A DNA stretch of 25,019 nucleotides from a virus: the IMG/VR virus record IMGVR_UViG_3300033551_000040, positions 1-25,019 of that record; one strand, written 5' to 3'. Positions 533 through 16,320 of the stretch are shown here, piece after piece. Position 1 is the stretch's first letter. Each line of letters opens with the position of its first letter. The position numbers and the translations under genes were made by a program. The notes below the pieces were generated by a model. It searched no databases. It saw only the letters and a list, made by a program, of their open reading frames with translations, and had not been told where the DNA came from.

Positions 533-883
533 ATGGCGAGCTACCCGCCCGACCCGGGGGGCAACTTCGCGTCGGACGCCCACCGCCGAGTGATGGCGCA
601 CCTGCCCAACCCCGACGACGACCCGATCAGCGTCGAGGAGCTGATCACCGCGCGGATCAACGCCGACCCCCACGCGCTGGCCCACTTCTCCGACGCGGCC
701 GAGGTCGCGGACATCCTGGAGGAGCTGGAGGCCGACGGCCACGCCAAGCAGCTCAAGAGCGGGTGGAGGAACACGGCCGAGGGGTTCGCGCTCCTGACCG
801 GGCCGCCCGAGGAGACGGACGCCGCCACGGCCCCGGCCACGATGGGCCTGGACCCGGCGTCCCTGAACGGAGGCGAGTCATGA
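533..883 (+). CDS. Hypothetical head-region protein with a winged-helix-like core
   Basis: This 116-residue protein starts at ATG 533, directly after the previous stop, with a purine-rich GGGGGGAAG upstream. Residues about 20-85 read as helix-helix-helix-wing: an amphipathic segment (ISVEELITARIN), AAEVADILEELEADGHAKQL, then a W-x-N-T-x-x-G-x-x-L-L-T-G ending. This is the general look of a small winged helix domain. The ends are Pro/Asp-rich and probably disordered. I recognise no named family. Position between the capsid and the fibre cassette suggests a structural or assembly role, but a DNA-binding role cannot be excluded. The stop overlaps the next start (ATGA), so translation is likely coupled. 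Confidence 0.7.
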   Translation: MASYPPDPGGNFASDAHRRVMAHLPNPDDDPISVEELITARINADPHALAHFSDAAEVADILEELEADGHAKQLKSGWRNTAEGFALLTGPPEETDAATAPATMGLDPASLNGGES

Positions 884-1407
884 ACATCCACCTCGATAGG
901 GGACGGGTCACCGTCGCCGGGCTGTGGCTTGGCGTCGGTGAGGACCTCGCCGATCCCAAGGTCCGGGCGCTGATCGACGCGGGCGTCCCGCCGATGCTCG
1001 GCGCCGCCTCGCTGGGCAACGCGGTCGAGAACAAGATCCTCGACCACATCACCAACCAGGCCTCGTACACGATGCCGACCCCGTACCTGGCCCTGTGGAC
1101 CTCCACGGTCGACGACTCCTCGACCGCCGCGACCGCGGGCGAGCTCACGTACACCACCTACGCCCGCCAGGCGATCAGCACCACCAACATGTCCGTCGCC
1201 GCGTCGGGCTCGGTGACCAACGACGTCGCGATCACCTTCCCGACCGTCTCGTCCGGCGGCGGCACGGTGACGTTCTGGCAGCTGACCAGCTCGTCCTCCG
1301 GCGCGGGCGACACGATCGTCTGGGGGACCGCGACCTCGACCGTGATCTCGACCACCCAGACCCCGCCCACGGTGATCATCGGCGGGCTCGTGATCACGCT
1401 CGACTAG
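880..1407 (+). CDS. Phage tail fibre protein, Gp80-type
   Basis: This 175-residue protein starts at ATG 880, in an ATGA overlap with the preceding stop and with GGAGG nearby. From residue about 50 it follows the pattern of the phage Gp80-type tail fibre family: ENKILDHITNQASYTMP (small N-terminal helix), YLALWTST (first strand), a TYARQAIS stretch, and then alternating Ser/Thr/Val beta strands (VAITFPTVSSGGGTVTFWQL) closing with GGLVITLD. Family members are short, all-beta and lie in tail fibre or baseplate gene clusters. The N-terminal 45 residues are less typical and may be a particle-attachment segment. A start further upstream in the same frame (763) would overlap the preceding gene by 120 nt and was not chosen. 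Confidence 0.75.
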   Translation: MNIHLDRGRVTVAGLWLGVGEDLADPKVRALIDAGVPPMLGAASLGNAVENKILDHITNQASYTMPTPYLALWTSTVDDSSTAATAGELTYTTYARQAISTTNMSVAASGSVTNDVAITFPTVSSGGGTVTFWQLTSSSSGAGDTIVWGTATSTVISTTQTPPTVIIGGLVITLD

Positions 1408-2735: not shown

Positions 2736-4349
2736 GTGCCCGTGCCCGGCCCCTCGCTGAACCTTCCGGGTCCGGGACCGTACTTCGGGCGGATCTCCTC
2801 CGGGGCCGCCGGCGCCGTCGAGGCGCCCGTCCCGCTGCAGCAGGCGGACGCGATCTCGATCGCCACGCTTGCGCTCAGCGCCGAGACCCAGGTCCCGCTC
2901 GGCACGGCGGCGGCGCAGAGCAGCGCCACGCTGGCGCTGACCGCCCCCGCCAGGGTGACGCTGGAGACGGTGACGGCCCAGTCCAGCGCTACGCTCACCC
3001 TCTCCGCCCCGGCCAAGCCCCCGCTTGAGACGGCGGCGGCTCAGAGCTCAGCGACGCTGGCGCTCTCGGCGCCGACCAGGGTTACGCTCGGGACCTCGCC
3101 GGCTCAGTCTGCCGCGACGCTGGCGCTGTCCGCGCTCACGAGGGTGCCGCTGGACCCCGCCGCAGCGGTCTCCTCGGCGACCTGCTCGGTGACGATCCCG
3201 TCCACGGCGGTCGAGGTCCCGCTCTCCGCCGCCGCCTGCCAGAGCGCCGCGACGCTCGCGCTCTCCGCGCCGACCCAGGTGCCGCTGCAGACGAGCGGGG
3301 CCACGTCGAGCGCCACGCTGGCGCTGTCCGCGACCGCCAGGGTCACCCTGGGTGCCGCCGCCTGCCTCGCGACCCCGACCCTGGCGCTCTCGGCCCCGAC
3401 CCGGGTCACGCTCGGGACGGCCGCGGCGCTCGCCACGCCGACCCTGGCGCTCAGCGCCCCCACCCGGGTCGTTCTCGGCGTCTCCGCGGCCCAGAGCGCA
3501 GCCACGCTCTCCCTCACGGCCCCGACCCGGGTCACCCTTGGCGCCGCCGCGGCGCAGAGCGGCGCCACCCTGGCACTCAGCGCGACCACGCAGGTCGCGC
3601 TTGGAGCAAGCGCCGCGGTCTGCTCGGCCACCCTGGCGCTGACATCCGGCGGCCCGACGGTCCCGCTGGCCACCGCAGCGGCGCAGAGCGCGGCCACCCT
3701 GGCGCTCCGCGCCGCGACCCAGGTGGCGCTCCAGACCGGAGCGGCGGTCCTGTCGGCGACGCTGCTGGTCTCCCGCCCGCAGCGGATCGCGCTTGGCTCG
3801 GCGGCGGCGGTCTCGACCGCCTCGCTCAGCGTTGTCATCCTCGACCCGGTCCCCGAGACGCACCCGAACCTCGGTGGAGACGTAGACGAGGTCCGGACCG
3901 GAGGCGACATCATCACCCCCGACGCGATCCCGTCCGGGCTGTACCCGCCGACCTACCCCTCGAGTTCGACGTACCCGGCGGTCAGCACGCCGTTCGACGG
4001 CCTGCCGCTCGGCGGCGACTACGACGAGGTCCTGACTGGCGGGGCCCCGGTCGGCCACGTCACCTCGGGCACCTACGACCAGGTGATCACGGGAGGGATC
4101 GTGAACGAGGTCCGCACCGGCGGCGAGCCGCGGGACACGACCGGTGGGACGCCCGACGCGGTCCCGACCGGCGGCGACGTGAACACGGTGCTGACCGGGG
4201 GCGCCGTGAACGAGGTCCGCACCGGCGGCACCTTCGACGAGGTGCTGACGGGCGGCGACGTGCAAGAGGTCCCGACCGGAGACTCGCCCGACGAGTCCGA
4301 GCGGGGCGGAACCTATGACCTGGTGCTGACCGGAGGAGAGGTCCTGTAG
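2736..4349 (+). CDS. Two-part repeat protein: about sixteen 21-residue repeats plus nonapeptide repeats
   Basis: The gene encodes 537 residues from GTG 2736 (a second GTG at 2742 is possible; GGGGCGGG lies just upstream). After a Pro/Gly-rich leader (1-31), residues 32-371 are about sixteen copies of a 21-residue unit with consensus V-x-L-x-x-x-A-A-x-S-x-A-T-L-A-L-S-A-P-T-R. Copies 6 and 13 carry insertions of 3 and 1 residues. A Pro/Tyr/Ser linker follows, then a second repeat family near residues 382-534 of nine residues, x-(V/Y/F)-(D/N)-E-V-(L/R)-T-G-G. Charge is almost absent from the first array, while the second is acidic. The regular strand-like register suggests a beta-solenoid or fibrous shaft, and position suggests a tail fibre or appendage. 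I know no named family for it. Function, oligomeric state and virion location are inferred. Confidence 0.75.
   Translation: MPVPGPSLNLPGPGPYFGRISSGAAGAVEAPVPLQQADAISIATLALSAETQVPLGTAAAQSSATLALTAPARVTLETVTAQSSATLTLSAPAKPPLETAAAQSSATLALSAPTRVTLGTSPAQSAATLALSALTRVPLDPAAAVSSATCSVTIPSTAVEVPLSAAACQSAATLALSAPTQVPLQTSGATSSATLALSATARVTLGAAACLATPTLALSAPTRVTLGTAAALATPTLALSAPTRVVLGVSAAQSAATLSLTAPTRVTLGAAAAQSGATLALSATTQVALGASAAVCSATLALTSGGPTVPLATAAAQSAATLALRAATQVALQTGAAVLSATLLVSRPQRIALGSAAAVSTASLSVVILDPVPETHPNLGGDVDEVRTGGDIITPDAIPSGLYPPTYPSSSTYPAVSTPFDGLPLGGDYDEVLTGGAPVGHVTSGTYDQVITGGIVNEVRTGGEPRDTTGGTPDAVPTGGDVNTVLTGGAVNEVRTGGTFDEVLTGGDVQEVPTGDSPDESERGGTYDLVLTGGEVL
2829..3848 (+). repeat. Tandem array of about sixteen 63-bp coding repeats
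   Basis: The DNA repeats in step with the 21-residue protein unit. Recurrent blocks such as GCCACGCTGGCGCT and CAGAGC followed by GCCACGCT recur every 63 bp. One unit is 72 bp and one is 66 bp, and both keep the reading frame. Copies differ mainly at synonymous and Ala/Ser/Thr positions, so the array is old or under selection at protein level, but it should still be prone to slippage and copy-number change. Confidence 0.85.
3879..4337 (+). repeat. Degenerate 27-bp (nonapeptide) coding repeats
   Basis: The unit is x-(V/Y/F)-(D/N)-E-V-(L/R/P)-T-G-G. Clear copies include DVDEVRTGG, DYDEVLTGG, TYDQVITGG, IVNEVRTGG, DVNTVLTGG, AVNEVRTGG, TFDEVLTGG and TYDLVLTGG, with several decayed copies between them. 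The first clear copy is separated from the main run by a Pro/Tyr/Ser linker (residues about 392-425). The spacing is nine residues from about residue 427 to the C-terminus. Confidence 0.8.
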
Positions 4350-4840: not shown

Positions 4841-7687
4841 ATGGCCTTCACCCCCAAGGACTGGCGGGACGCGACCACCTACGCGGGCGGCGGCGACATC
4901 TCGACCCCGCTCACGGCGGCGTCGCTCGAGGACATGGAGACGCGCCTCGCTGCCTACGCCGACAGCCTGGTCAGTCCCGACGTCAGCCAGAGCGCCCTGC
5001 TCTACGGCTTCGCCGACGACGAGGACAACCACCAGGACTTCTCCGCCGACGCGCTGGCGACCGGCTGCAACTCCGCCCGGATCGGCGTCGGCTACAACGC
5101 GCCGGGCTCGGCCGCCTCGCTTGCGGCGGTAGCGGCCTACGAGGCTGACCCGCAGATCGACCAGGTGGTGGTCTACCTCTGGTCGGTGTCCGTGATCAGC
5201 TCGGCGACCTGGGCGACGCAGGCGGCGCTGGCCTGCACCCAGTACCCGAACGCCCTGATCGAGCTCATCAACGAGCCCAACCTCCTGAGCTTCGGCGGCT
5301 ACACCTACCAGCAGGCCGCCGACGCGACGATCGCCGCCGTCAACGCCTGCCCCGCGGGGCGGATCATCGGCCCGGCGGTGAGCCAGATCGGCGAGTCGAT
5401 GGGCGGCGACTACCTCGGCTACCAGGCGGCGATGTACGACCGGATCTTCGACTCGGTGGATCCGACGGAGATGGCCGGGGTCGCCTTCCACCTCTACCCG
5501 ACCACCGGCGATCCGGGGACCGAGGTCGAGGACCACGTCACCGCCTGCTACACGGCCGGGCTTGAGCAGCTGCCGGTGTTCCTGACCGAGATCGGGTTCC
5601 AGTACGGGATCTACGGCGCCTACCAGCCCTGGTCGTCGGCCAACACCTTCAACACCTACTACAACGACGAGCGGCTGGGCGGGCTGTTCTTCTACCGCCT
5701 CGCTCCGCAGCAGCCGACGCCGATCCCGGGCGAGACGTTCCAGCAGTACCCGCTGACCACCAACCAGCCGCTCGACGACGCGCTGACCGAGGCGTTCAAC
5801 GCCCCGCCGGGTGGCGACCCGGCGCCCTACGCGCCGCTCAACAGCCCGACCTTCACCGGCAGCCCCAGGGCACCGACCCCGCTGCCCGACGACGACGGCA
5901 CCCGGATCGCGACGACGCAGTTCGCCGCCCGGATGAACCGCGAGCGTTTGTTCCGCCCCGAGGACGCCGGTGCCGCGGCCGACGGGGTCACCGACGACAC
6001 CGTGGCGCTGCAGGAGGTGATCGACGCCTCGATGGCGGCCACCGCCTCCGGCAGGCGAGCGGTGACGCAGCTCAGCGTCGCCACCTACCTCTGCGACACC
6101 GCCCCGCGCACCGACCGCGAGGGCCACTGCATCCTCTCGGTCACCGACGCGCTCGACTCCCAGAAGTCGCTGACGATCCGGGGCATCAACCCGGCGGCGG
6201 CGGTGGACCCCGCCTACCTGAGCGACCCGCTCGTCGGCCGCTCGATCATCAAGACGACCGAGACCAGCGCCTACTCGGGCAGCTTCGGACCCCCCTCGGT
6301 GCTCGGCGGCGCCACGGAGGAGCAGGGCATGTCGTCCACCCGGGAGTACACCGGGGTGATCCAGCTCCAGGACTTCGTCGTCCAGGTGCCCCAGAACCCG
6401 TCGATCGGCGGCATCGACGCGATGAGCTGGGGCGGCCTCGACGCGCTCGACGTGGCGGTGGTCGCGGGGGCAACCACGACGGTCCAGACCAACGATGAGG
6501 GCTTCGGCTGGCGCCTCCCCTCGGTCTGGGGCAACGGCGCGGTCCGGCTCAAGGGCTGCCAGGCGGTCCAGACCTACGTCGGCTTCGTCCTCCACCACGC
6601 GGACCACCACTTCTACGAGGCCGCCTGCGCCTACTACTGCCGGATCGGCTTCGCCTTCCAGACCGGGCTGACCGAGTTCGCCTACCCGCTGATCGGCCAC
6701 TACTGGATGATCGAGGGCTGCAAGTACTGCATCGCAGGATGGACGCCCGGGACCGGCCTTGCCTCCCCGGACCAGGAGGTGTTCTTCGCCGGGATGCTGG
6801 TGCAGACCGAGGTCGGAGGCGGCAACTTCACGATCACCAACTCGGTCTACGATCCGGACTCCAAGCTCCGGGGCCGGGTGGACTGGCACCACTGGGCGCT
6901 GGACGTGATCGGCACCGCCCTGCCCGCCATCAGCGGAGGTGCCAAGCTCGACGTTCGCCTGCCCCACGCCGGGCACATGACGGTGAACCGCTACGTGCCC
7001 CCCGCCGATGACGACATCGACGAGGCGCACACGCAGTTCTGGATGGACCCGACCACCGGGGAGGCGATGGCGAAGGGCAAGACCGGCGGCGCCGGGACGG
7101 TCCGAAACTACAGCCTCGTCGGCGGCTCCTACCCCGTCTACCGGACGATCTTCTCCGCCGAGAGCTTCCTGGTCGGCGGGATGGTGAACGGCTTTCCCTA
7201 CGCCGTCGGCTCGGTCGTCTCCGACGAGAGCAGCACCTCCGTCCGAGTCGCGGTCTCGTCCGAGGCCCTCGCCCTGAACGTCGACCACCAGACCGCCTCG
7301 GTAGTGCTGCCGCTGCACCCGGTGAGCGTGTTCCCGTTCGACACCGCCGACTACGCGATGGTGGGCGGGACGATCCAGCTGCGGCTCAAGGTGGTGGTGA
7401 TGAGCAACGGCACCGACCCCGCCACCGACCTCGTCGTCGGGCTCTACAAGGCTGACTCGTCCGGCGCCGCCAACGCGCTCTCGATCAGCCCGGACGGCTC
7501 CGTCCTGTCGTCGGTGACCCTGACCAACGCGAACCTGACCGCCTCCAACCCGACCACGGTCACCGGCTCGGTCTTCACCGCCACCACCGGACCGGTCGAG
7601 TTCCTGGTCGCCCCCTCCGGCGCCAACACGGCCACCGGCTTCGCCGGCTCGATCCACTGCTACCTCCAACTCGCGCACACCCTCTGA
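4841..7687 (+). CDS. Tailspike/fibre with clan GH-A-like glycosidase domain and pectate-lyase-type beta-helix
   Basis: The protein has 948 residues. The start MAFTPKDWRD, then ISTPLTAASLEDMETRL, is typical of actinophage fibre N-termini that attach to the tail. Residues about 55-300 resemble a TIM-barrel glycosidase of clan GH-A: LINEPN contains the expected acid/base Glu145 after the strand-4 Asn, FLTEIGF provides a candidate nucleophile Glu250, and AFHLYP and FFYRLAP fit adjacent strands. Residues 328-368 are a phage fibre linker (SPTFTGSPRAPTP, then TRIATTQFA). From about 370, DAGAAADGVTDDTVALQEVID is the opening of Pectate_lyase_3-type right-handed beta-helices. Two C-terminal beta domains follow, containing FWMDPTTGEA and, at the end, VEFLVAPSGAN. 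Role: receptor binding and probable depolymerisation of host surface polysaccharide. Substrate is unknown. The GH-A assignment rests on motifs only. Confidence 0.75.
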   Translation: MAFTPKDWRDATTYAGGGDISTPLTAASLEDMETRLAAYADSLVSPDVSQSALLYGFADDEDNHQDFSADALATGCNSARIGVGYNAPGSAASLAAVAAYEADPQIDQVVVYLWSVSVISSATWATQAALACTQYPNALIELINEPNLLSFGGYTYQQAADATIAAVNACPAGRIIGPAVSQIGESMGGDYLGYQAAMYDRIFDSVDPTEMAGVAFHLYPTTGDPGTEVEDHVTACYTAGLEQLPVFLTEIGFQYGIYGAYQPWSSANTFNTYYNDERLGGLFFYRLAPQQPTPIPGETFQQYPLTTNQPLDDALTEAFNAPPGGDPAPYAPLNSPTFTGSPRAPTPLPDDDGTRIATTQFAARMNRERLFRPEDAGAAADGVTDDTVALQEVIDASMAATASGRRAVTQLSVATYLCDTAPRTDREGHCILSVTDALDSQKSLTIRGINPAAAVDPAYLSDPLVGRSIIKTTETSAYSGSFGPPSVLGGATEEQGMSSTREYTGVIQLQDFVVQVPQNPSIGGIDAMSWGGLDALDVAVVAGATTTVQTNDEGFGWRLPSVWGNGAVRLKGCQAVQTYVGFVLHHADHHFYEAACAYYCRIGFAFQTGLTEFAYPLIGHYWMIEGCKYCIAGWTPGTGLASPDQEVFFAGMLVQTEVGGGNFTITNSVYDPDSKLRGRVDWHHWALDVIGTALPAISGGAKLDVRLPHAGHMTVNRYVPPADDDIDEAHTQFWMDPTTGEAMAKGKTGGAGTVRNYSLVGGSYPVYRTIFSAESFLVGGMVNGFPYAVGSVVSDESSTSVRVAVSSEALALNVDHQTASVVLPLHPVSVFPFDTADYAMVGGTIQLRLKVVVMSNGTDPATDLVVGLYKADSSGAANALSISPDGSVLSSVTLTNANLTASNPTTVTGSVFTATTGPVEFLVAPSGANTATGFAGSIHCYLQLAHTL

Positions 7688-8265
7688 TGCCAGATCCCTT
7701 CATCACCGCGGCCGAGCTGTCCGACTACCTCGGGCGTGACGTGGACTCCGAGCCCGCCGCCGACCTGGCGGTCGAGTTCGCCTGCGACGCCTGTCGCGAC
7801 TACGTCGGCCAGACCCTCACCGCGGGCTCGTCCTCGGTCACCCTGAACGGGACCGGGACCGACGCGCTGCTGCTCCCCGAGTCCCCGGTCGGGTCGGTCA
7901 GCTCGGTCGAGGTGCTCGACTCCGAGGGCTCCTTCCAGACCGCCGGGGCGGCGGACTTCTCGGTCAGCGGCGACGGGGTGCTCTACGCCACCAACACCGC
8001 GGGCACCGCCACCTTCGGGAGCTGCTGGCCAAGGGGGAGGCAGAACGTCCGGGTGGGCTACTCCCACGGCAACGGGACCGCCGACCTGGCCCGCTCGATC
8101 AGGGGCGTGGCGCTGACCCTGGCCGCCCGCTTCCTGGTCCAGGGGGTCGCGGCGGCGGAGCAGGTCGGCGAGGTGAACGTGCGCTACGCCGCCGAGTCCA
8201 CCGCGCTGATGCCGACCGAGCGCATCATCCTCGACGGCTACCGCCGCCACCACGGGGGATCATGA
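7687..8265 (+). CDS. Head-tail connector / adaptor protein (gp6/gp15-like)
   Basis: This 192-residue protein starts at ATG 7687, overlapping the spike's stop by one base and with no clear ribosome site, so translation is probably coupled. The pattern is that of the head completion adaptor family. A helical N-terminus (FITAAELSDYLGRDV, then DLAVEFACDACRDYVGQTL) is followed by a beta tongue (SVTLNGTGTDALLLPESPVGSVSSVEVL, then VRVGYSHG) and a C-terminal helix pair (LARSIRGVALTLAARFLVQG). Such proteins form a dodecameric ring beneath the portal. The motif order and length fit well. Its distance from the capsid gene, with about 6.8 kb of fibre genes between, is unusual. Confidence 0.8.
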   Translation: MPDPFITAAELSDYLGRDVDSEPAADLAVEFACDACRDYVGQTLTAGSSSVTLNGTGTDALLLPESPVGSVSSVEVLDSEGSFQTAGAADFSVSGDGVLYATNTAGTATFGSCWPRGRQNVRVGYSHGNGTADLARSIRGVALTLAARFLVQGVAAAEQVGEVNVRYAAESTALMPTERIILDGYRRHHGGS

Positions 8266-9650
8266 AGAGGCTCGCCCTGATCCTGATCGGCGCGCTGCTG
8301 CTCGCTGCCTGCAGCGCGGCCACCACGCCCGCCACCGACATCACCCAGACCTCGGCCAGGCTCCACGCGCAGGTCGGCTGGCAGCAGGGTGAGCAGGGGA
8401 CCTACTGGTTCGAGTACCGAGTGGTCGGCGCTCTAACGTGGCAGAAGACCCCGGTCCGCAGCTGGGGGCCGATGCAGAACTCGGCGTCCAACGTCGACCT
8501 CCCCGAGAACGTCACCGGCCTGACCCCCGCGACCAACTACGAGTTCCGCTACTGCGGCCAGATGAGCGGGGCCGAACTGTGCCAGGGGGTGCAGACCTTC
8601 ACCACCCTGAGCAGTGGCGCCTGCGACCGCAACGCGACCCCCGCCACCCTCGCTGCCGAGGTCTCAGCGGCGACGGCGGGGCAGACGGTCTGCCTCGCCA
8701 CCGGCAGCTACGGCACCTGGGGCGGGACCAACAAGGTGATCACGGTCAGGGCCGCCGCCGGGCAGACCCCGACGATGGGAATCAGCTTCGGCTCGGGGGA
8801 TCAGAGCTTCACGCTCCAGGGCGTCCGGATCACGGGCGGCTCGATCTCGAGCGGCGCCCAGAACCTCACCGTCCGCGACTCGGAGTTCACGGCCTCGCTT
8901 CAGATCACGGGGCTGGCGAACGCGAACGTCCTGCTCGACCACAACACCCACAACAACATCAACGCCCCCTCCGGCGCCCCCCCGGCGCGCATCCACCTCG
9001 CCTACGGCTCCGAGACACCCTCCGGGGTGACCGTCCGCAACTCCCTCCTGCAGGGCGGCGACGCGGACGGGATCCAGACCGGCGTCGGCCTGAGCGTGAT
9101 CAACAACGAGTTCAGCCAGATCGTCGCCGGCGGGCCCAACCACACCGACAACATCCAGATGGTGGGCAACTCGACCGGGATGGTGATCCGCGGCAACTGG
9201 GTCCACGCGAGCGCGAGCACCCAGGGCATCGCCGCCTACGACGGGCTCAGGAACGCGACGATCGAGGACAACGTCGTCGACATCCCCCGCCCCTGGGGGA
9301 TCGAGGCCTACTCCGACGACAGCTCGGTGATCCGCCACAACACGCTGGTCTACAAGCAGGTCTGCGACTTCAACCTGCCCTGCGGGATCATCTCGATCAC
9401 CCGCAAGTCCCAGGACGACGCGGGCTTCGGAACGGTGGTCCGCGACAACATCGCCACCGAGATCAGCGTCACCTCGGGCTCGACCGTCGCCGCTCAAGAC
9501 CACAACATGCTCCGTCGGTTCGTCGGCCCCAACGACTTCCTCGGCACGCCCGCGTTCCTGAACACCACCACCTACGCCGGGCACCACCTGGCGGCCGGTT
9601 CCCCCGGCAGCGACGCCGCCTCCGACGGGCTCGACGTGGGGATCCGCTAG
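8262..9650 (+). CDS. Predicted lipoprotein with FnIII-like domain and right-handed beta-helix
   Basis: This 462-residue protein starts at ATG 8262 in an ATGA overlap, with GGGGGA just upstream. The N-terminus is a type II signal peptide: basic MKR, hydrophobic LALILIGALLL and lipobox LAAC with Cys17 followed by Ser. Residues about 20-115 resemble a fibronectin III domain (TQTSARLHAQV, then VTGLTPATNYEFRYCG, ending TFTTL). From about 120 to the end there are parallel beta-helix coils with recurring N-x-x-V-R-D/G-N turns (LTVRDSEFTASL, VTVRNSLLQGGDADGIQTG, LSVINNEFS, MVIRGNWVHA, ATIEDNVVDI, SVIRHNTLVYK, TVVRDNIATE). This is the fold of pectate lyases and polysaccharide-binding proteins. No clear lyase active site was identified. 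A membrane-anchored exported protein inside the neck operon is odd. Possible roles are superinfection exclusion, a cell-surface glycan enzyme, or a virion protein with a lipid anchor. Confidence 0.8.
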   Translation: MKRLALILIGALLLAACSAATTPATDITQTSARLHAQVGWQQGEQGTYWFEYRVVGALTWQKTPVRSWGPMQNSASNVDLPENVTGLTPATNYEFRYCGQMSGAELCQGVQTFTTLSSGACDRNATPATLAAEVSAATAGQTVCLATGSYGTWGGTNKVITVRAAAGQTPTMGISFGSGDQSFTLQGVRITGGSISSGAQNLTVRDSEFTASLQITGLANANVLLDHNTHNNINAPSGAPPARIHLAYGSETPSGVTVRNSLLQGGDADGIQTGVGLSVINNEFSQIVAGGPNHTDNIQMVGNSTGMVIRGNWVHASASTQGIAAYDGLRNATIEDNVVDIPRPWGIEAYSDDSSVIRHNTLVYKQVCDFNLPCGIISITRKSQDDAGFGTVVRDNIATEISVTSGSTVAAQDHNMLRRFVGPNDFLGTPAFLNTTTYAGHHLAAGSPGSDAASDGLDVGIR

Positions 9651-10015
9651 TGCCGATCACGACCGCACTCCACGACGTCACCCCGTTCGCCCTCCGCGGG
9701 CTGGCGTGGCTGGCGCTGGGCGAGACGGGCTACATCACCCGGGGCTCGTACACCGACAACGCCGGCGGCGGCGCCAGCCAGACTCGCGCCACGGTCGGCA
9801 CCGTGGCCTGCCGGGTGGACCCGGTGGGCGGGGGTGAGAACCTGGTCGCCGAGCTGATCTCGGATCGGACCACGCACCTGGTCACCCTCCCCCCGATGAC
9901 CGACATCGACTCGGTCGAGGAGCTCCACGTGGGGTCCGACCGCTTCATCGTCACTGCCGTCCGGGCCCGCACGAACGAGCAGGTCCGGGTCGTGGAGGCC
10001 ACCAAGTCTTCGTAG
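9650..10015 (+). CDS. Head closure / head-tail stopper protein
   Basis: The 121-residue protein is read from GTG 9650, which overlaps the lipoprotein's TAG by one base. It matches the small beta-barrel head-closure family (SPP1 gp16-like): ARATVGTVACRVDPVGGGEN, then LVAELISDRTTHLVTLPPMTDIDSVEEL, then VGSDRFIVTAVRARTNEQVRVVEA. The TDI-x-x-V-E-x-L-x-V-x-x-x-x-F-x-V core is characteristic. In the virion it plugs the connector after DNA packaging and receives the tail. Neighbours fit: the adaptor is one gene upstream and the tail terminator downstream, although both sides are interrupted by accessory genes. A start further upstream in the same frame would lie inside the lipoprotein gene and was rejected. 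Confidence 0.75.
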   Translation: MPITTALHDVTPFALRGLAWLALGETGYITRGSYTDNAGGGASQTRATVGTVACRVDPVGGGENLVAELISDRTTHLVTLPPMTDIDSVEELHVGSDRFIVTAVRARTNEQVRVVEATKSS

Positions 10016-10103
10016 ACGCGTGGGGGGGAGTTGGGTTCCTGGTGGCGCTCTGACTTCTCCCCGCGACGCCAGCCACCAGACCAGCCACCAGACGAAGGAC
10101 GAC
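10016..10103 (+). promoter_or_regulatory. 88-bp leader with tandem 12-bp repeat and competing inverted repeats
   Basis: CAGCCACCAGAC occurs twice head-to-tail at 10070-10081 and 10082-10093. CTGGTGGC at 10039-10046 is the exact reverse complement of GCCACCAG in both copies (10072-10079 and 10084-10091), so two alternative hairpins are possible. A G-run/C-run pair (GGGGAG near 10025, CTCCCC near 10056) could form a third stem. The GAAGGA ribosome site follows at 10094-10099, right after the second repeat. No -35/-10 promoter pair is recognisable. Confidence 0.6.
10070..10093 (+). repeat. Perfect 12-bp tandem direct repeat
   Basis: Two adjacent identical copies of CAGCCACCAGAC end one base before the GAAGGA ribosome site of the 84-residue gene. 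The core also matches, in reverse complement, CTGGTGGC 24 nt upstream of the first copy. It could be a protein operator pair, an RNA switch arm, or a recent duplication. Confidence 0.85.
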
Positions 10104-10358
10104 ATGGAACCAGAGCCGATCAAGTACGCCTGCACGATCCAGGTCGCGGGCATCCTCCACCACTGCATCGAGGACTACGACGCCGTCCACTCGCGCCTCG
10201 TGAACTCCGACAGCCCCACCCAGCCGGTCGAGCTGATGATCGGGGCGGACTACGGCGACGACGAGGGCGGGAAGCGGCTGATCAAGGCCGCGTTCATGCC
10301 GCTCGCCATCTCGGCGGTGTTCGAGATCCCCGCCGACATCGCCAAGGTGGCGCCGTGA
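10104..10358 (+). CDS. 84-residue hypothetical protein at the head of the glycan cassette
   Basis: The start is ATG 10104, chosen because GAAGGA lies 4 nt upstream. A GTG at 10020 in the same frame would read through the repeat leader and has no ribosome site. The protein begins MEPEPIKYACTIQVAGILHHC and ends IKAAFMPLAISAVFEIPADIAKV. It has mixed alpha/beta character, is acidic and has no signal or transmembrane segment. I recognise no family. It is the first gene after the repeat leader, and its stop overlaps the glycosyltransferase start (GTGA), so it is co-translated with that enzyme. It may be a cassette accessory or a relic of the neck module. Confidence 0.65.
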   Translation: MEPEPIKYACTIQVAGILHHCIEDYDAVHSRLVNSDSPTQPVELMIGADYGDDEGGKRLIKAAFMPLAISAVFEIPADIAKVAP

Positions 10359-11524
10359 AGGTCCTCTGGCACTCCAACGGGCCGCACGCCCCCACGGGCT
10401 ACGGTCGCCAGACCGCCATGTTCGCCCAGATGCTCGCCCAGGACCACGAGGTCTGGATTAGCGCCAACTACGGGCTCGAGGCCGCGCCGCTGGTCTGGAA
10501 CGGGATCCCGGTCCTGCCGGGCCTCGGGCAGACCCACGGGAACGAGGCGCTGCCCGGCCACGTCAACGCCATGTTCAACGGTCGCGACGACGGGCTGGTG
10601 TGGACGCTCTACGACACGCCGGTGTTCGACCCGGACGTGTTCCAGAGGTTCAACGCGGCCTGCTGGACGCCGATCGACCACTGCCCCCCGCCTCCCCCGG
10701 TGATCTCGTTCTTCCGGGCTAGCCAGGCGATCCCGGTGGCGATGTCCCGCTACGGCCAGGGGGAGCTGGGCGAGTTCGACCCGCTGTACGTTCCCCACGG
10801 GGTGGACGTGGACGTGTTCAAGCCGACCGCGTCCGACGTGCGCCAGCAGATGGACCTGCCCGACGACGCGTTCCTGATCGGGATGGTGGCGGCGAACAAG
10901 GGTCGCCCGTCGCGGAAGTGCTTCCAGCAGGCGTTCGAGGCCTTCCGGATCTTCCGCAGGACCCACGAGGACGCCCACCTGTACCTGCACACCACGCTCT
11001 CGGCCAGCTACTCGGCGGGAGAGGACCTCCCGACGCTGCTGGCCTCGCTCGAGATCCCCGACGACGCGGTCAAGTACCCGAACCAGTACTCGATGATGTT
11101 CGCCCCGCTCGACGAGGCGAAGATGGCGCAGATCTACTCGGCCTGCAACGTGCTGCTGAACTGCTCCATGGGCGAGGGCTTCGGGGTGCCGATCATCGAG
11201 GCCGCCGCCTGCGGGACCCCGGCGATCGTGACCGACTTCAGCGCCATGCCGGAGGTGGCCGGGCCGGGGTGGAGGGTGAGCGGCCGACCCCACTGGACCG
11301 GCCAGTGCTCGTGGATGAGCGTCCCGGACGTGGGCGAGATGGTGGGGGCGCTCGAGGAGGCGCACGACCAGTCGGAGGAGCGCCGCTCCAGCCTGTCCAG
11401 GGAGTGCCGAGCCCACGCACTCGGGTACAGCGCCCGATCGGTGTACGACGAGCACATGGTCCCGGCGCTGGACGAGATCCAGGAGCGCATCGGGATGCGC
11501 CAGCCTGTTAGGGTGGCCGCGTGA
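10355..11524 (+). CDS. Glycosyltransferase, GT-B fold, family 4-like
   Basis: The 389-residue protein is read from GTG 10355 (GTGA overlap). N-terminal acceptor domain: KVLWHSNGPHAPTGYGRQT with the Gly-rich first loop. Inter-domain link: LYVPHGVDVDVFKP (about 144-157), the standard GT4 hinge. C-terminal donor domain: FLIGMVAANKGRPSRK (basic phosphate-binding region) and EGFGVPIIE (Glu274 to Glu282), the E-x7-E donor-sugar motif, followed by AAACGTPAIVTDFSAMPE. This is a retaining transferase that moves a sugar from a nucleotide donor to an acceptor. The length is normal for the family and all key residues are present. Donor and acceptor cannot be read from sequence. Placement among neck and tail genes suggests that the acceptor could be a virion protein, or a host glycan. 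Confidence 0.85.
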   Translation: MKVLWHSNGPHAPTGYGRQTAMFAQMLAQDHEVWISANYGLEAAPLVWNGIPVLPGLGQTHGNEALPGHVNAMFNGRDDGLVWTLYDTPVFDPDVFQRFNAACWTPIDHCPPPPPVISFFRASQAIPVAMSRYGQGELGEFDPLYVPHGVDVDVFKPTASDVRQQMDLPDDAFLIGMVAANKGRPSRKCFQQAFEAFRIFRRTHEDAHLYLHTTLSASYSAGEDLPTLLASLEIPDDAVKYPNQYSMMFAPLDEAKMAQIYSACNVLLNCSMGEGFGVPIIEAAACGTPAIVTDFSAMPEVAGPGWRVSGRPHWTGQCSWMSVPDVGEMVGALEEAHDQSEERRSSLSRECRAHALGYSARSVYDEHMVPALDEIQERIGMRQPVRVAA

Positions 11525-12264
11525 GGGTCGGCTGGCTTCAGGACGACCCCGGCTACGTCGGGGGGGCCGAGCTGACCATGGCCGAGTTCAGGTCCGCGGC
11601 CCCGCGCGGGGTCGAGGTCGTGGACTGCCCGCCGGGCGGGGTGGCCAGGTGCGACGCCTACGTGGTGGGCAACTGCCTCGGCTACGACCTAGGCGAGATC
11701 GAGGGGATGGTCAGGCGGTCGGGCACCGTGGTCCGCTACCACCACGACGTGGCCCGCGCCCCGGTGGACGGGCTGTTCACCGAGGTGCGCCGCTTCAACC
11801 GGGTCCGCCACGCGTTCTGCTCCCCGCTTCAGCGGGCGCGGATGGGGATGGAGGGGGAGCTGATCCCCCCGGCGCTGGACCTGGACCGCTTCCGCGCCCT
11901 CAGAAGCTCCAACCACCGCCACGGCGCCTGCTGCGTGGGCAGGATGGCCTACGGCAAGGGCCTGGAGCTGATCGCCGAGTACCCCGAGCCGGTGGACGTG
12001 TACAGCAGCGTGCCGGTCCGCTCGGAGCGCAGCGCTCGCTACAGGGGGGCGGCCGCGGACGTGCCCGCGACGCTGGCCCAGTACGAGAAGTTCGTCTTCC
12101 TCCCGACCGCCCTCGAGCCCTTTGGGCGGGCGGTGGTCGAGGCCTGGGCCGCGGGCCTGGACCTGGTGGTGAACCGCAACGTGGGGGCGCTGTACTGGAT
12201 CGAGTACGACCAACCGGCGCTGGAGACGGCCGCCGCGGACTTCTGGAGGCTGGTGACCAAGTGA
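11521..12264 (+). CDS. Second GT-B glycosyltransferase (short)
   Basis: This 247-residue protein starts at GTG 11521 (GTGA overlap). It is shorter than usual GT4 enzymes but keeps the landmarks. These are RVGWLQDDPGYVGGAELTM (Gly-rich acceptor loop), LIPPALDLDRFR (hinge), VGRMAYGKGLELI (Arg141 and Lys146 of the phosphate-binding site), FVFLPTALEPFGRAVVE (E-x7-E, Glu199 to Glu207) and AWAAGLDLVVNRNVGALYW. Much of the N-terminal domain is condensed, as seen in other phage-encoded GT4-like proteins. It probably acts with the enzyme upstream to add a second sugar. Substrate unknown. The missing length lowers certainty about activity, but not about fold. Confidence 0.75.
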   Translation: MRVGWLQDDPGYVGGAELTMAEFRSAAPRGVEVVDCPPGGVARCDAYVVGNCLGYDLGEIEGMVRRSGTVVRYHHDVARAPVDGLFTEVRRFNRVRHAFCSPLQRARMGMEGELIPPALDLDRFRALRSSNHRHGACCVGRMAYGKGLELIAEYPEPVDVYSSVPVRSERSARYRGAAADVPATLAQYEKFVFLPTALEPFGRAVVEAWAAGLDLVVNRNVGALYWIEYDQPALETAAADFWRLVTK

Positions 12265-12413
12265 TCGCGAGGACCGTCCCCGATGTGAGGAAGATGAAGC
12301 TCCGCTATAGCGAGCGAGAGCTGCTGGCCGAGGCCCTGAGAGACAGGCCGATGAGCCCGGACAACGCGATCGCGATCCTGACCCGACTCGGGCGGGAGCG
12401 GGCCGCCCGATGA
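12261..12413 (+). CDS. 50-residue basic helical hypothetical protein
   Basis: The frame runs from GTG 12261 (GTGA overlap) to TGA 12411-12413, which overlaps the next ATG. An internal ATG at 12294 with GAGGA just upstream would give 39 residues and is a credible alternative start. The sequence is highly charged and helical (KLRYSERELLAEALRDRP, then PDNAIAILTRLGRERAAR), with no membrane segment or metal motif. Overlaps at both ends support a real gene. No family is recognised. Confidence 0.6.
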   Translation: MIARTVPDVRKMKLRYSERELLAEALRDRPMSPDNAIAILTRLGRERAAR

Positions 12414-13033
12414 TTGACCTGATCGTCCCCACCATCGACGGGCGCGAGGACTCCCTCAAGCGGTGCCTCAGGTCCTTCCGCGCCAACACCGACGACCTGA
12501 ACGTGATCGTGGTGGCCGAGTCGAAGACCTGCGGCTGGGGCTGGCAGCAGGGGCTCGCCGCCTCCACGGCCCCCTACGTGGCCCTGGTCGCGGACGACCT
12601 GGAGTGCATCTCGCCCGCGTGGGCCGAGCGCTGCATGGAGGCGGCCGACGAGGACCTGCTCCCCTGCCCGCGCGTGTACACCCCCCGGGGCGCGATCGAG
12701 TCCCAGGGCGGCGACATGAACGCGGTCGGCCACCTGCTCAACCGCCACCGGAAGGACGGGGCGCCCTGCGACTTCACCACGGTCCCGTTCATGTCGCGGT
12801 CGCAGGCCGAGCGGATCGAGATGATCGACACCCAGTACTGCTGCGACGTCTGGGTGAGCTACCGCGGGCGCCAGCTCGGCTGCGAGACGGTGCTGCGCCA
12901 CGGCTACGACCTGGTCCACCACCAGGAGCAGGTCGGGCGCGGGGCGGGGATGGCCCAGAACGACCGCGATCGGATCGACGCCGAGGCGATGTTCCTGGCG
13001 CTGGAGTCGGGGGTGGAGGTGGCCAGTGGCTGA
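12410..13033 (+). CDS. Glycosyltransferase, GT-A fold, family 2-like
   Basis: The protein has 207 residues from ATG 12410. DLIVPTIDGREDSLKRCLRS is the classic GT2 nucleotide-binding start. VIVVAES gives the next strand, GWQQGLAASTAPYVALVADD the central helix-strand, and Asp62-Asp63-Leu64 stands where the DxD-type metal/donor motif is expected. A later HHQEQ (near residue 170) could supply the third metal ligand or catalytic base. Length is near the GT2 catalytic core alone, without a membrane anchor. Similar short GT2 proteins occur in actinophage structural operons. The gene overlaps the methyltransferase start by 8 nt. Donor and acceptor are unknown. Confidence 0.8.
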   Translation: MIDLIVPTIDGREDSLKRCLRSFRANTDDLNVIVVAESKTCGWGWQQGLAASTAPYVALVADDLECISPAWAERCMEAADEDLLPCPRVYTPRGAIESQGGDMNAVGHLLNRHRKDGAPCDFTTVPFMSRSQAERIEMIDTQYCCDVWVSYRGRQLGCETVLRHGYDLVHHQEQVGRGAGMAQNDRDRIDAEAMFLALESGVEVASG

Positions 13034-13496
13034 GTCCTACGAGATGGGGGCCTTCGGCAGCCACGTGCCGGTGCTGGAGTCGCTCAGGCCCCGGCCGAAG
13101 CGGGTGCTGGAGTTCGGCGTGGGCGACCACTCGACGAGCGCGTTCCTAAGCATGAAGTCCGTCACCCGCCTGGTCTCCGTCGAGACCGACATCGGATGGC
13201 GCGAGCGCGTCTCCAACGAGCACAGGAAGCACCTCAAGAGCGGGCGCTGGAGGCTCCTCGACGAGACCGACGAGGTGCCGCCGCTGACCGACTTCGACCT
13301 GGTCTTCATCGACGACGGGCTGCTGCCCGCCCAGCGCCACGAGACCATCGCCCGGGTGCTCGGCCAGAAGCACCCCCGGGTGGTGATCCACGACGCCGAC
13401 TACGCCCCGTATGTCGAGTCGATCGAGGCCTTCTCCTCCGACTTCAGGATCGAGGACGCCTACTCCCCCTACACCGCCGTCGTGGACGCGAACTGA
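13026..13496 (+). CDS. Class I SAM-dependent methyltransferase-like protein
   Basis: This 156-residue protein starts at GTG 13026. RVLEFGVGDHST (27-37) is a motif I E-x-G-x-G-type SAM loop. Glu53 at the end of LVSVET fits the ribose-binding acid of strand 2. DLVFIDDG (91-98) is strand 4 with its Asp, and RVVIHDAD fits strand 5. It is compact and lacks the usual C-terminal strands 6-7, so it is at the small end for a class I enzyme. The cassette context suggests O-methylation of a transferred sugar, but protein or other targets are possible. Fold call is reasonable; activity is uncertain. Confidence 0.7.
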   Translation: MAESYEMGAFGSHVPVLESLRPRPKRVLEFGVGDHSTSAFLSMKSVTRLVSVETDIGWRERVSNEHRKHLKSGRWRLLDETDEVPPLTDFDLVFIDDGLLPAQRHETIARVLGQKHPRVVIHDADYAPYVESIEAFSSDFRIEDAYSPYTAVVDAN

Positions 13497-13621
13497 TGAT
13501 CACCGGCTCCGGCTACAGCACCAACCCCTACGAGGTGGTCTGGTTCTGCCACCTGTGCGGCGTGAGCTTCGTCCAGACCCCGGGCAGCGGCGCCCACCAC
13601 TGCGGCGGGACCGGCAAATGA
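13496..13621 (+). CDS. 41-residue mini zinc-ribbon protein
   Basis: The frame runs from ATG 13496 (1-nt overlap) to TGA 13619-13621 (ATGA overlap with the next). It contains W-F-C-H-L-C-G followed 13 residues later by H-H-C-G. Cys18, Cys21, His34 or His35, and Cys36 form a plausible four-ligand zinc site. Little else exists outside the finger. Perfect packing at both ends and the metal pattern argue against chance. Function unknown; it could bind nucleic acid or a partner enzyme in the cassette. Confidence 0.6.
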   Translation: MITGSGYSTNPYEVVWFCHLCGVSFVQTPGSGAHHCGGTGK

Positions 13622-13785
13622 CCTATCAGGACCGCCACCGCATCATCGGCCCGCTGATCATCTTCCTGTGGATCTGCGTGGCGGCCACCGATGGCGGCAT
13701 GGGCTGGCTGATCGCGATCCTGCTCGTCTCCGGGTTCAGCCTGCTCGACCACCTGCGCCACCCCCCGCTGAGGGGGGTCCCGTGA
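13618..13785 (+). CDS. 55-residue two-helix membrane protein
   Basis: The frame starts at ATG 13618 and ends at TGA 13783-13785, overlapping the epimerase GTG. Two hydrophobic helices are visible: IIGPLIIFLWICVAA (about 9-23) and GWLIAILLVSGFSLL (about 29-43). The short loop DGGMG joins them, with basic or His-rich ends (TYQDRHR, then DHLRHPPLRG). It is the only integral membrane protein in the glycan cassette. It could anchor the glycosyltransferases to the membrane or present lipid-linked sugar, or it could be an unrelated holin-like or exclusion peptide. No family is recognised. Confidence 0.6.
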   Translation: MTYQDRHRIIGPLIIFLWICVAATDGGMGWLIAILLVSGFSLLDHLRHPPLRGVP

Positions 13786-14669
13786 GGATCCTGGTCACGG
13801 GTGCCGAGGGCTTTGTCGGCCAGCACCTCTGCGCCGAGCTTCAGACGGCGGGTCACGACGTGCGCCCCTCAGACATCGGAGACCACGACCTCTCGGTGCC
13901 CGACGAGGCGAGGGACCTGGTGATCCAGACCCGCCCCGACTACGTCGTCCACCTGGCGGCCCGCTACGGGCGCCTGCTCTGCCGCGACGAGCCCCACCTG
14001 GCGGTCAGCGACAACACGGCCTCGACCACCGAGCTGGCGGCGGAGTGCGCGCGGTGGGGGACCCCGGTCCTCTACGCCTCCTCCTCAGAGGTCTACGGCG
14101 ACCACGGCACCGCCACGATCCGCGAGGACTCCGAGCTCAGGATGCCGACCACGATCTACGGGCTGTCGAAGCGCTGGGGCGAGGAGGCCCTGCGGCTGTA
14201 CGTGGAGCACGAGAACCTGACCATCGTCCGGATGAACATGCTCTACGGCCCCGGCCAGCTCGGCGGGTACGGGCGCTGCTCGCTGGCCACGTTCATCGAC
14301 AGCGCGGTCCGCGGCGAGCCGTTCACCGTCCACCGCAACACCTCCCGCTCGTGGCTCTACATCGCCGACGCGGTGCGGGCGCTGCGGCTGCTGATCGAGG
14401 GGGAGTTCTACGGGACCTTCAACCTCGGGAACCCGGCGCGGGCGTGGCCGATGGAGACGATCGCCGACGAGGTCAAGAACCAGGTGAGGCTGTTCCGGGA
14501 GTGCCCCGACCCGATCGTCGAGGACCCGCCCGAGGGCCAGATCCCGCACAAGAACTACGACGTGACCCACCTGCTCGGGATGGTCGACTGGGTCCCCGAG
14601 GTCGGGCTCGCGGAGGGGATCACCGCGACGGTCGCGTGGGCCCGCGCGAAGGCGCAGGTGACGGCATGA
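13782..14669 (+). CDS. NAD(P)-dependent sugar epimerase/dehydratase (extended SDR)
   Basis: This 295-residue protein starts at GTG 13782 (GTGA overlap). RILVTGAEGFVGQHL is the Rossmann T-G-x-x-G-F-V-G cofactor loop. VVHLAARYG is the conserved strand 4 end, ASSSEVYG supplies the catalytic Ser (100-102), and Tyr126-x3-Lys130 (in IYGLSKRWGEE) is the active-site pair. MNMLYGPGQ and SWLYIADAVRAL are the substrate-domain landmarks of NDP-sugar epimerases and dehydratases. It interconverts a nucleotide sugar (a 4-epimerase or 4,6-dehydratase type reaction), presumably supplying the donor for the transferases just upstream. All catalytic residues are intact and length is standard. The exact substrate cannot be deduced. 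Confidence 0.85.
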   Translation: MRILVTGAEGFVGQHLCAELQTAGHDVRPSDIGDHDLSVPDEARDLVIQTRPDYVVHLAARYGRLLCRDEPHLAVSDNTASTTELAAECARWGTPVLYASSSEVYGDHGTATIREDSELRMPTTIYGLSKRWGEEALRLYVEHENLTIVRMNMLYGPGQLGGYGRCSLATFIDSAVRGEPFTVHRNTSRSWLYIADAVRALRLLIEGEFYGTFNLGNPARAWPMETIADEVKNQVRLFRECPDPIVEDPPEGQIPHKNYDVTHLLGMVDWVPEVGLAEGITATVAWARAKAQVTA

Positions 14670-15819: not shown

Positions 15820-16320
15820 ATGGCGCGCTCTACCAAGGATGCTGTCCTGAAGGGGCCCGGCGACCTGGCCACGGCCGAGGTCGTCACGGACGTCCCGAAC
15901 CCGGGCGACACGTTCCTGGTCCGCGGGCTGCCCGCCGCGTACTCGAACCAGGCGTCGAGCGAGGCGCTGAAGATGACCACGGTCGGCCTGGACCAGATCG
16001 CCACCGTGGACACGGCGCGGCTCGAGGTCCTGCAGTTCGCCCACGGGGTGGTCGAGCCCACGTTCACCGTCGACGAGGCCCAGCAGGTCTCCGAGAAGTA
16101 CGGGCCGATGTTCCGCAAGGTGATCACCAAGATCGACGAGCTGTCGGGGGTCAACAAGGAGGCAATCACCGAAGCGACGGCCAAGTTTCCGCGCAGCGGA
16201 GCGAGCGAGAATGGGGCAGACCTGGGTGATGGAACTCCCGCCGGGGGTGATGGACCCGATGTTCACCTACGAGCTGGCGGAGAGCCTCCACATGACGGTC
16301 CAGGAGATGCTGACCGGTGA
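15820..16320 (+). CDS. Tail assembly chaperone, upstream (G-like) frame
   Basis: ATG 15820 with AAGGAGG is clear. The zero-frame product is 166 residues, but only about the first 125 look natural. These include VLKGPGDLATAEVVTDVPNP, TFLVRGLPAAYSNQASSEAL and a helical FTVDEAQQVSEKYGPMFRKVITKIDELSGVNKEAI. After about residue 126 it turns into a Gly/Pro/Asp-rich tail (GDGTPAGGDGPDVHLRAGG) over the stretch where a second frame encodes the better-looking protein. Position between tail tube and tape measure and the overlapping second frame define the classical G/GT pair. The chaperone coats the tape measure during tail assembly and is absent from mature virions. Confidence 0.8.
   Translation: MARSTKDAVLKGPGDLATAEVVTDVPNPGDTFLVRGLPAAYSNQASSEALKMTTVGLDQIATVDTARLEVLQFAHGVVEPTFTVDEAQQVSEKYGPMFRKVITKIDELSGVNKEAITEATAKFPRSGASENGADLGDGTPAGGDGPDVHLRAGGEPPHDGPGDADR
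16124..16320 (+). other. Chaperone frame-overlap window with candidate +1/-2 frameshift sites
   Basis: Both chaperone frames are open only between 16124 and 16320, so any shift must lie here. Candidates are TTT-C at 16186-16189 (tRNA-Phe could re-pair with TTC), CCC-G at 16237-16240 (CCC to CCG slip), GGG-G in the G-run at 16146-16150, and the GGGGGTGA run at 16243-16250 for a -2 event. AAGGAGG at 16156-16162 is a strong internal Shine-Dalgarno-like sequence that might pause ribosomes. Confidence 0.5.

What the first reader, a model, noticed from the sequence alone, without database searches (positions are those of the whole stretch)
8262..9650. Beta-helix lipoprotein encoded inside the head-tail neck operon
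The gene lies between the head-tail adaptor (7687-8265) and the head-closure gene (9650-10015), overlapping both, so it is made with late virion proteins. Yet it carries a clear type II signal peptide (MKR, hydrophobic core, lipobox LAAC with Cys17), an FnIII-like domain and a long parallel beta-helix. Known phage lipoproteins (superinfection exclusion proteins such as those of T5 or TP-J34) are usually small and made early or from the prophage. A 462-residue beta-helix of the polysaccharide-binding or cutting kind, anchored outside the membrane late in infection, suggests three ideas: blocking or removing receptor glycan so progeny are not lost to the dying cell or debris; surface exclusion of rival phages; or a virion part that carries lipid.
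Basis: partly seen in the sequence, partly recalled or inferred. Interest (0 to 1): 0.78.

Follow-up and report, generated by a model that had tools for sequence, protein, structure and literature searches.

The report
Exported beta-helix lipoprotein in phage neck operon
A soil phage carries, between two genes for its head-tail joint, a gene for a lipid-anchored surface protein of a kind that soil actinobacteria keep among their capsule-making genes, which suggests the phage remodels its host's sugar coat late in infection; this is inferred from sequence and has not been tested.

Summary
ORF 8262-9650 (462 aa) overlaps the adaptor gene by 4 bp (ATGA) and the putative head-closure gene by 1 bp (TAGTG). 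It is the only window gene with a lipobox (Cys17). A weak FnIII-like domain and a right-handed beta-helix (PF13229, above cut-off) follow.

New evidence places it. Its best relatives are secreted or lipoprotein beta-helices of actinobacteria (51-54% identity in genome G524, 32-38% in G640), lying in exopolysaccharide loci beside a Wzx-type flippase, a Wzy_C-type gene and GT4/GT2 genes. All ten relatives with a readable N-terminus carry an export signal.

The module also occurs, with a signal peptide, in two unrelated phage lineages: IMG/VR contig L071, next to a neck gene, and Acidobacteria phages Tunturi_1/2, after the tail spike. In prophage-like loci of the same bacterial class, adaptor and major tail protein lie 1.2-1.4 kb apart; here they are 7.05 kb apart, filled by this gene and a GT/epimerase cassette.

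Most likely it is an accessory, lipid-anchored glycan-binding or glycan-altering protein acting on the infected cell's envelope, not a virion part. No catalytic site or activity is shown.

The parts
8262..9650 (+). gene for the beta-helix lipoprotein, 462 aa, ATG start, TAG stop
   Evidence: codon usage like the phage's other genes (GC3 0.961)
8262..8312 (+). type II signal peptide MKRLALILIGALLLAA-C17 (lipobox LAAC)
   Evidence: only lipobox in the window, chance 0.3-2%; relatives all carry export signals
8340..8606 (+). FnIII-like domain, about residues 27-115
   Evidence: weak Pfam hits; 30% identity to lipoprotein + FnIII of a bacterial protein in L041; AF2 strands 31-99 of the mature protein
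8619..9647 (+). right-handed parallel beta-helix module, residues 120-462, with signature R243, D269-G-I-Q272, H294-x-D296-x-I-Q299, D327, H359-N360 and C-terminal TTYAG..SPG..AA.G
   Evidence: PF13229; 45-54% to L071 and G524a; 26-38% to Tunturi gp17 and G640 copies; AF2 and VIA
7687..8265 (+). head-tail adaptor gene upstream, 4-bp overlap
   Evidence: phrog_442 E 2.9e-33
9650..10015 (+). putative head-closure/completion gene downstream, 1-bp overlap
   Evidence: PF05521 E 0.0095, below cut-off
10355..11524 (+). GT4-type glycosyltransferase (start near 10355)
   Evidence: PF13692 6e-10, phrog_2170 2.7e-26
11521..12264 (+). second glycosyltransferase, weak match
   Evidence: PF00534 E 0.0026, below cut-off
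12410..13033 (+). GT2-type glycosyltransferase
   Evidence: PF00535 3e-6
13026..13496 (+). methyltransferase-like protein (by eye only)
   Evidence: motif VLEFGVGDHS read by eye; no Pfam match
13785..14669 (+). nucleotide-sugar epimerase/reductase (start near 13785)
   Evidence: PF01370 4.7e-35, phrog_540 3.1e-45

Best explanation
The gene is accessory late cargo of bacterial type. It is co-translated with the neck genes, exported by the Sec route, lipidated at Cys17 and held on the outer face of the cytoplasmic membrane on a short FnIII-like stalk. There its beta-helix binds or alters the host's own cell-surface polysaccharide, because this protein family belongs to actinobacterial exopolysaccharide loci. 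Late in infection this would change or loosen the glycan layer around the infected cell, helping progeny leave and/or keeping free virions from sticking to the dying cell. Shown by sequence: translational overlap with neighbours, a lipobox found nowhere else in the window, a beta-helix module, family-wide export signals, EPS-locus relatives, recurrence in unrelated phages. Inferred: lipidation, actual export, glycan target, timing, benefit to the phage.
For: Lipobox and overlaps. Relatives in actinobacterial genomes: E 4e-98 in G524, 3e-40 in G640. All carry an export signal where the N-terminus is readable, and two are lipoproteins like this one. G524 copies lie near a Wzx-type flippase (PF13440) and glycosyltransferases; in G640 the lipoprotein copy is 3 bp from a GT4 gene, next to GT2, with a Wzy_C-type gene in the wider locus. 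Structural neighbours are glycan enzymes and a surface adhesin: alginate lyase 6kfn Z 24.6, PfbA 24.4, RbmB 23.4, AlgE6 23.3, nearly tied. The polar residues conserved in 9-10 of 10 relatives (R243, D269, Q272, H294, D296, Q299, D327) fall at strands that recur about every 25 residues and would stack at one face of the helix. The same module with a signal peptide recurs in two unrelated phage lineages. Tunturi_1 and 2 copies differ with dN 0.046, dS 0.231, so there the domain is kept under selection. Codon usage is that of the phage.
Against: No known catalytic set or metal site was recognised; the fold alone shows no activity, and PfbA with the same fold is an adhesin. Under an actinobacterial wall a membrane lipoprotein may not reach the outer glycan. 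The phage's glycosyltransferases show no clear homology to those of the host EPS loci (one 42-residue stretch only), so it is not a transferred EPS operon. The host class name is not given by the tools. In L071 and Tunturi the module has a type I signal and long C-terminal tails, so anchoring differs.
Confidence: 0.5

Rival explanations
1. Virion component: a head- or neck-attached beta-helix appendage, where the hydrophobic N-terminus is an anchor or is simply inherited and not cleaved.
For: Position among fibre and neck genes in the window and in L071; the Tunturi relative is annotated 'virion structural protein'; neighbours 763-1407, 1417-2160 and 4841-7687 look like fibre or decoration proteins.
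Against: A signal peptide takes the protein out of the cytoplasm where virions assemble. Bacterial relatives in exopolysaccharide loci have the same signals. The Tunturi label does not rest on proteomics: the paper's main text mentions proteomics only as future work. No tail- or head-binding domain was found. Related prophage-like loci lack it.
Confidence: 0.17
2. Surface exclusion protein: the lipoprotein blocks or masks the receptor so that rivals and siblings do not adsorb, without enzymatic action.
For: Known phage exclusion factors such as T5 Llp are lipoproteins, and such proteins also prevent loss of progeny on debris (PMC9586334). A lipid-anchored glycan binder could mask a glycan receptor.
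Against: T5 Llp is described as small and early expressed; this one has 446 mature residues and is in the late operon. No homology to known exclusion proteins was found in Pfam, PHROGs or NCBIfam.
Confidence: 0.13
3. Part of a glycosylation cassette with the downstream GT4, GT, GT2, methyltransferase-like and epimerase genes, which decorates virion proteins or makes a phage-specific surface glycan that the beta-helix binds or trims.
For: The gene and the cassette together fill the adaptor to major-tail interval (7.05 kb against 1.2-1.4 kb in L078/L079). Capsid glycosylation is reported for mycobacteriophages with glycosyltransferases (Freeman 2023, as cited in PMC11256854). The host operon in G640 pairs a lipoprotein beta-helix with GT4 and GT2.
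Against: The closure gene separates the beta-helix gene from the cassette; cytoplasmic glycosyltransferases and an exported protein work in different compartments; no clear homology between phage and host-locus transferases.
Confidence: 0.12
4. Passenger gene: a transduced host gene retained without benefit to the phage.
For: Bacterial relatives are the closest ones; the gene is rare in viruses.
Against: Codon usage is that of the phage, exact overlaps with both neighbours, at least two separate phage origins on the tree, purifying selection in Tunturi (dN/dS about 0.2).
Confidence: 0.08

Closest known systems
Secreted and lipoprotein beta-helix proteins of actinobacterial exopolysaccharide loci (G524, G640 copies; unnamed family within PF13229)
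   Same: Sequence homology over the whole module (32-54% identity), export signals, same signature residues and C-terminus; two are lipoproteins
   Different: Here encoded in a phage late operon, with an FnIII-like stalk seen in another lipoprotein of that class (L041), not in these copies
Tunturiibacter phages Tunturi_1/2 gp17 and IMG/VR contig L071 protein 7944-11510
   Same: Signal peptide + homologous beta-helix in late genes beside fibre/tail-spike or neck genes
   Different: Type I signals, about 1,180-1,190 aa or longer with C-terminal FnIII/Ig-like parts, unrelated genomes
Vibrio cholerae RbmB, PL6 alginate lyases/chondroitinase B and AlgE epimerases
   Same: Parallel beta-helix fold (VIA Z 21-25); RbmB is a biofilm-polysaccharide lyase with a predicted signal peptide (PMC11637428)
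   Different: 9-17% identity; catalytic residues of those families not recognised here
T5 Llp and other phage superinfection-exclusion lipoproteins
   Same: Phage-encoded lipoprotein that would act at the infected cell's envelope
   Different: Those are small and early or prophage-expressed; no sequence relation found
Phage tailspikes and depolymerases (P22, Sf6, HK620, Fri1)
   Same: Beta-helix fold for surface glycans
   Different: Virion proteins without signal peptide, joined to a tail-binding domain; here an export signal and no such domain

Membership tests
Bacterial lipoprotein (Sec/SPII) | Lipobox after a charged start and hydrophobic core | tested here: met
   MKRLALILIGALLLAAC, pattern match at C17, unique in the window
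Bacterial lipoprotein (Sec/SPII) | Lipidation and membrane anchoring | not testable with these tools
   needs labelling or fractionation; SignalP/LipoP not available
Right-handed beta-helix region PF13229 | Score above Pfam gathering cut-off | tested here: met
   26.4 bits against 25.9; 8 of 11 rows of A6 match at E up to 0.1 (row L049 is a misread frame)
Actinobacterial EPS-locus beta-helix family | Homology over the full module | tested here: met
   E 3.8e-98, 54% over 1-342
Actinobacterial EPS-locus beta-helix family | Export signal at the N-terminus | tested here: met
   window lipobox; all relatives with a readable N-terminus, by eye
Actinobacterial EPS-locus beta-helix family | Lies with EPS biosynthesis genes | tested here: inconclusive
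   phage has GT4, GT2 and an epimerase nearby, but without clear homology to those of the host loci, and a neck gene lies between
Polysaccharide lyase family 6 / chondroitinase B | Sequence membership and catalytic Lys/Arg with Ca site | tested here: inconclusive
   profile reaches AlyGC at E 4.5e-5, mainly over the N-terminal repeats; catalytic residues could not be mapped residue by residue; no PL6 hit in Pfam or NCBIfam
Phage tailspike | N-terminal head/tail-binding domain and no export signal | tested here: not met
   signal peptide and FnIII-like part instead; no PHROG match
Superinfection-exclusion lipoproteins (T5 Llp type) | Small and early expressed | tested here: not met
   462 aa, in the late neck operon
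Superinfection-exclusion lipoproteins (T5 Llp type) | Blocks adsorption or injection of further phages | not testable with these tools
   needs an infection assay
Conserved neck component of this phage group | Present between adaptor and closure genes in related phages | tested here: not met
   L078 and L079 have adaptor and major tail protein 1.2-1.4 kb apart without it; the other viral carriers are unrelated phages

The most novel reading that the evidence does not exclude
Soil phages of unrelated lineages have repeatedly taken up an exported glycan-active beta-helix from bacterial exopolysaccharide loci and run it with their late genes, as an 'exit' system that remodels the infected cell's own glycan coat from outside the membrane just before lysis. 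That would be a phage function separate from tailspike depolymerases, endolysins and exclusion proteins.
Probability: 0.3. Interest if true: 0.75.

Novelty: new variant of a known kind. Interest (0 to 1): 0.52.

Why it matters
Phage enzymes against surface sugars are known on virions, acting during entry. A secreted, membrane-anchored counterpart made with the late genes would act during exit, and would give a testable answer to how progeny avoid being trapped in the host's own matrix. I found no assigned function for the bacterial family either, so the phage copy is a compact handle on an unknown exopolysaccharide-locus protein.

Tried and rejected
Single-sequence scans for the lipoprotein, the adaptor and the fibre gave no viral or genome relatives; they use exact 8-mers and were replaced by profile and whole-genome searches. 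An alignment with Tunturi (A2) gave no new viral locus. DNA motif scans of viral contigs: RPWGIE gave one true and one chance hit, HTDPIQLYG and a gapped RPWGIE/RHNT motif gave none. An EF..HTDxIQ pattern in genome contigs gave 36 stretches, none encoding a relative. phmmer hits to phosphotriesterases in the PDB (E 0.0015 and up) cover mostly residues 97-195, belong to another fold and were set aside as chance. Row L049 of A6 was read in the wrong frame and is ignored; the G596, G684 and G508 matches are weak and were not used. (hhalign A3 against A2) is circular because both hold the window. The epimerase is not closer to the host genomes than to phage families. A tape-measure search of the host class failed on the server. 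Fold matches all lie near Z 21-25 and do not single out one enzyme family. Chimeric assembly was considered and rejected: exact 4-bp and 1-bp overlaps and matching codon usage.

Full report
WHAT IS THERE. The window is a 25,019-base IMG/VR virus record, 70% GC, carrying the end of a capsid gene, fibre-like genes, neck genes, major tail protein, tape measure and a further tail-region protein. The ORF 8262-9650 encodes 462 residues. Its ATG overlaps the adaptor stop (ATGA) and its stop shares a base with the next start (TAGTG), read directly from the sequence. The N-terminus MKRLALILIGALLLAAC matches the lipobox rule, and no other of 22 window genes does; the chance is 0.3% by composition, 2% by shuffling. 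The FnIII-like stretch is weak alone, but residues 5-124 align at 30% with a bacterial lipoprotein that begins with the same lipobox + FnIII layout (L041). The rest is a right-handed beta-helix (PF13229), modelled with moderate confidence.

RELATIVES IN BACTERIA. In a draw of 396 genomes from the phylum of an Arthrobacter genome, only the FnIII-like N-terminal part found matches. In 399 genomes of the class of one of those hits (G176), the beta-helix found close relatives: G524 (E 3.8e-98, 54%, several copies) and G640 (E 3.4e-40, several copies, three in tandem). The proteins start with signal peptides, and two are lipoproteins (L061 '...LSAGCGNAAA', L064 '...AALSGCGGVSA') (by eye). Their neighbours are exopolysaccharide genes: a Wzx-type flippase and glycosyltransferases in G524, GT4, GT2 and a Wzy_C-type gene in G640. 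In G640 the lipoprotein copy (L064 13709-14881) is 3 bp from the GT4 gene. So the family belongs to surface-polysaccharide loci.

RELATIVES IN PHAGES. Tunturi_1 and Tunturi_2, podoviruses of Acidobacteria, carry the module in gp17 behind a type I signal peptide (MKKLILILPLLATSLAGA-Q), downstream of the tail spike (blastp 3e-19 over residues 100-461). 'Virion structural protein' there is a label: the paper's main text mentions proteomics only as future work. With alignment A3 an IMG/VR contig appeared, L071 (51% GC, 45% identity): signal peptide, the module, then FnIII repeats. It lies between fibre-like genes and a Neck1/tail-completion gene, followed by scaffold and major head protein. In the stretches compared, the window, L071 and Tunturi_1 share no other gene, and the tree needs at least two phage origins (window and L071 group at 91/87 support). 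Scans with two profile peptides and one motif found no other close viral carrier, so the gene is rare in that collection; records near the window may be left out of it.

THE NECK WITHOUT IT. Two prophage-like loci in the same class, found by the major tail protein, have adaptor and major tail protein 1,188 and 1,386 bases apart (L079, L078). In the window the distance is 7,050 bases. The extra space holds the lipoprotein, the GT4, GT and GT2 genes, a methyltransferase-like gene and an epimerase. The lipoprotein is therefore cargo and not a core neck part. Codon usage is that of the phage (GC3 0.961), so the uptake is probably not recent, though the likely host also has high GC. In Tunturi the domain is under purifying selection (dN 0.046, dS 0.231).

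HOW IT MAY WORK. R243, D269, Q272, H294, D296, Q299 and D327 are kept in 9 or 10 of 10 relatives (whose printed numbers are one lower). By the model's strand list they fall at strands 228-230, 255-257, 279-284 and 304-309 (mature numbering, 16 lower than precursor numbering), which recur about every 25 residues and would stack at one face; the Asn residues at 282, 312, 337, 360 and 396 look like a structural ladder. Such a polar face is where beta-helix glycan enzymes and binders hold their substrate (established knowledge). Structural neighbours are alginate lyase, RbmB, inulin fructotransferase, AlgE, PL6 lyases, tailspikes and the adhesin PfbA, all within Z 21-25, so an enzyme is not shown. 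RbmB is the best working analogue: a beta-helix lyase with a predicted signal peptide acting on the host's own biofilm polysaccharide (PMC11637428). I therefore favour action on the infected cell's glycan layer late in infection. Steps shown: co-translation layout, lipobox, family, EPS context, recurrence. Steps inferred: export, lipidation, target, timing, benefit.

ALTERNATIVES. A virion role is disfavoured by the export signal shared with bacterial relatives. A T5 Llp-type exclusion role fits the lipoprotein, but not the size and timing described for Llp (PMC9586334). A link with the glycosyltransferase cassette is possible, since capsid glycosylation is reported for mycobacteriophages with glycosyltransferases (PMC11256854), but the transferases show no clear homology to those of the host loci.

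VERDICT. A real and unusual accessory gene; its classification as an exported lipoprotein beta-helix is well supported, its function is not established. New variant of a known kind (late phage cargo of bacterial surface-glycan type).

Noticed in passing
window 4841-7687: Large fibre gene between capsid and adaptor combines a fibre N-terminus, a glycoside hydrolase core (PF11790, above cut-off) and the start of a pectate-lyase-like beta-helix.
   Followed up: no
window 10355-14669: Cassette of GT4, GT, GT2, methyltransferase-like and epimerase genes inside the neck region; with the lipoprotein gene it widens adaptor to major tail protein to 7 kb against 1.2-1.4 kb in prophage-like loci L078 and L079.
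   Followed up: partly
window 2736-4349: Protein made largely of short repeats (AAAQSSATLALSAPT-like units, then GGxxDEVLTGG-like units), no Pfam family at its cut-off.
   Followed up: no
window 763-1407: Fibre-like protein with Gp80 domain (PF23140); the true start is probably the ATG near 880, as the listed N-terminus overlaps the previous gene out of frame.
   Followed up: no
window 15820-16320: Tail assembly chaperone whose codon usage falls off (GC3 0.82 against about 0.96), as expected if a programmed frameshift replaces its tail.
   Followed up: no
L071 7944-11510: 1188-aa protein of an unrelated virus: signal peptide, the same beta-helix, then FnIII repeats, overlapping a Neck1 gene.
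   Followed up: partly
L002 7845-11399: Tunturi_1 gp17, deposited as 'virion structural protein', begins with a clear type I signal peptide, which the annotation does not mention.
   Followed up: partly
L064 9002-14881: Three tandem paralogous secreted beta-helix genes next to GT4 and GT2 in genome G640, a bacterial family for which no function was found.
   Followed up: partly
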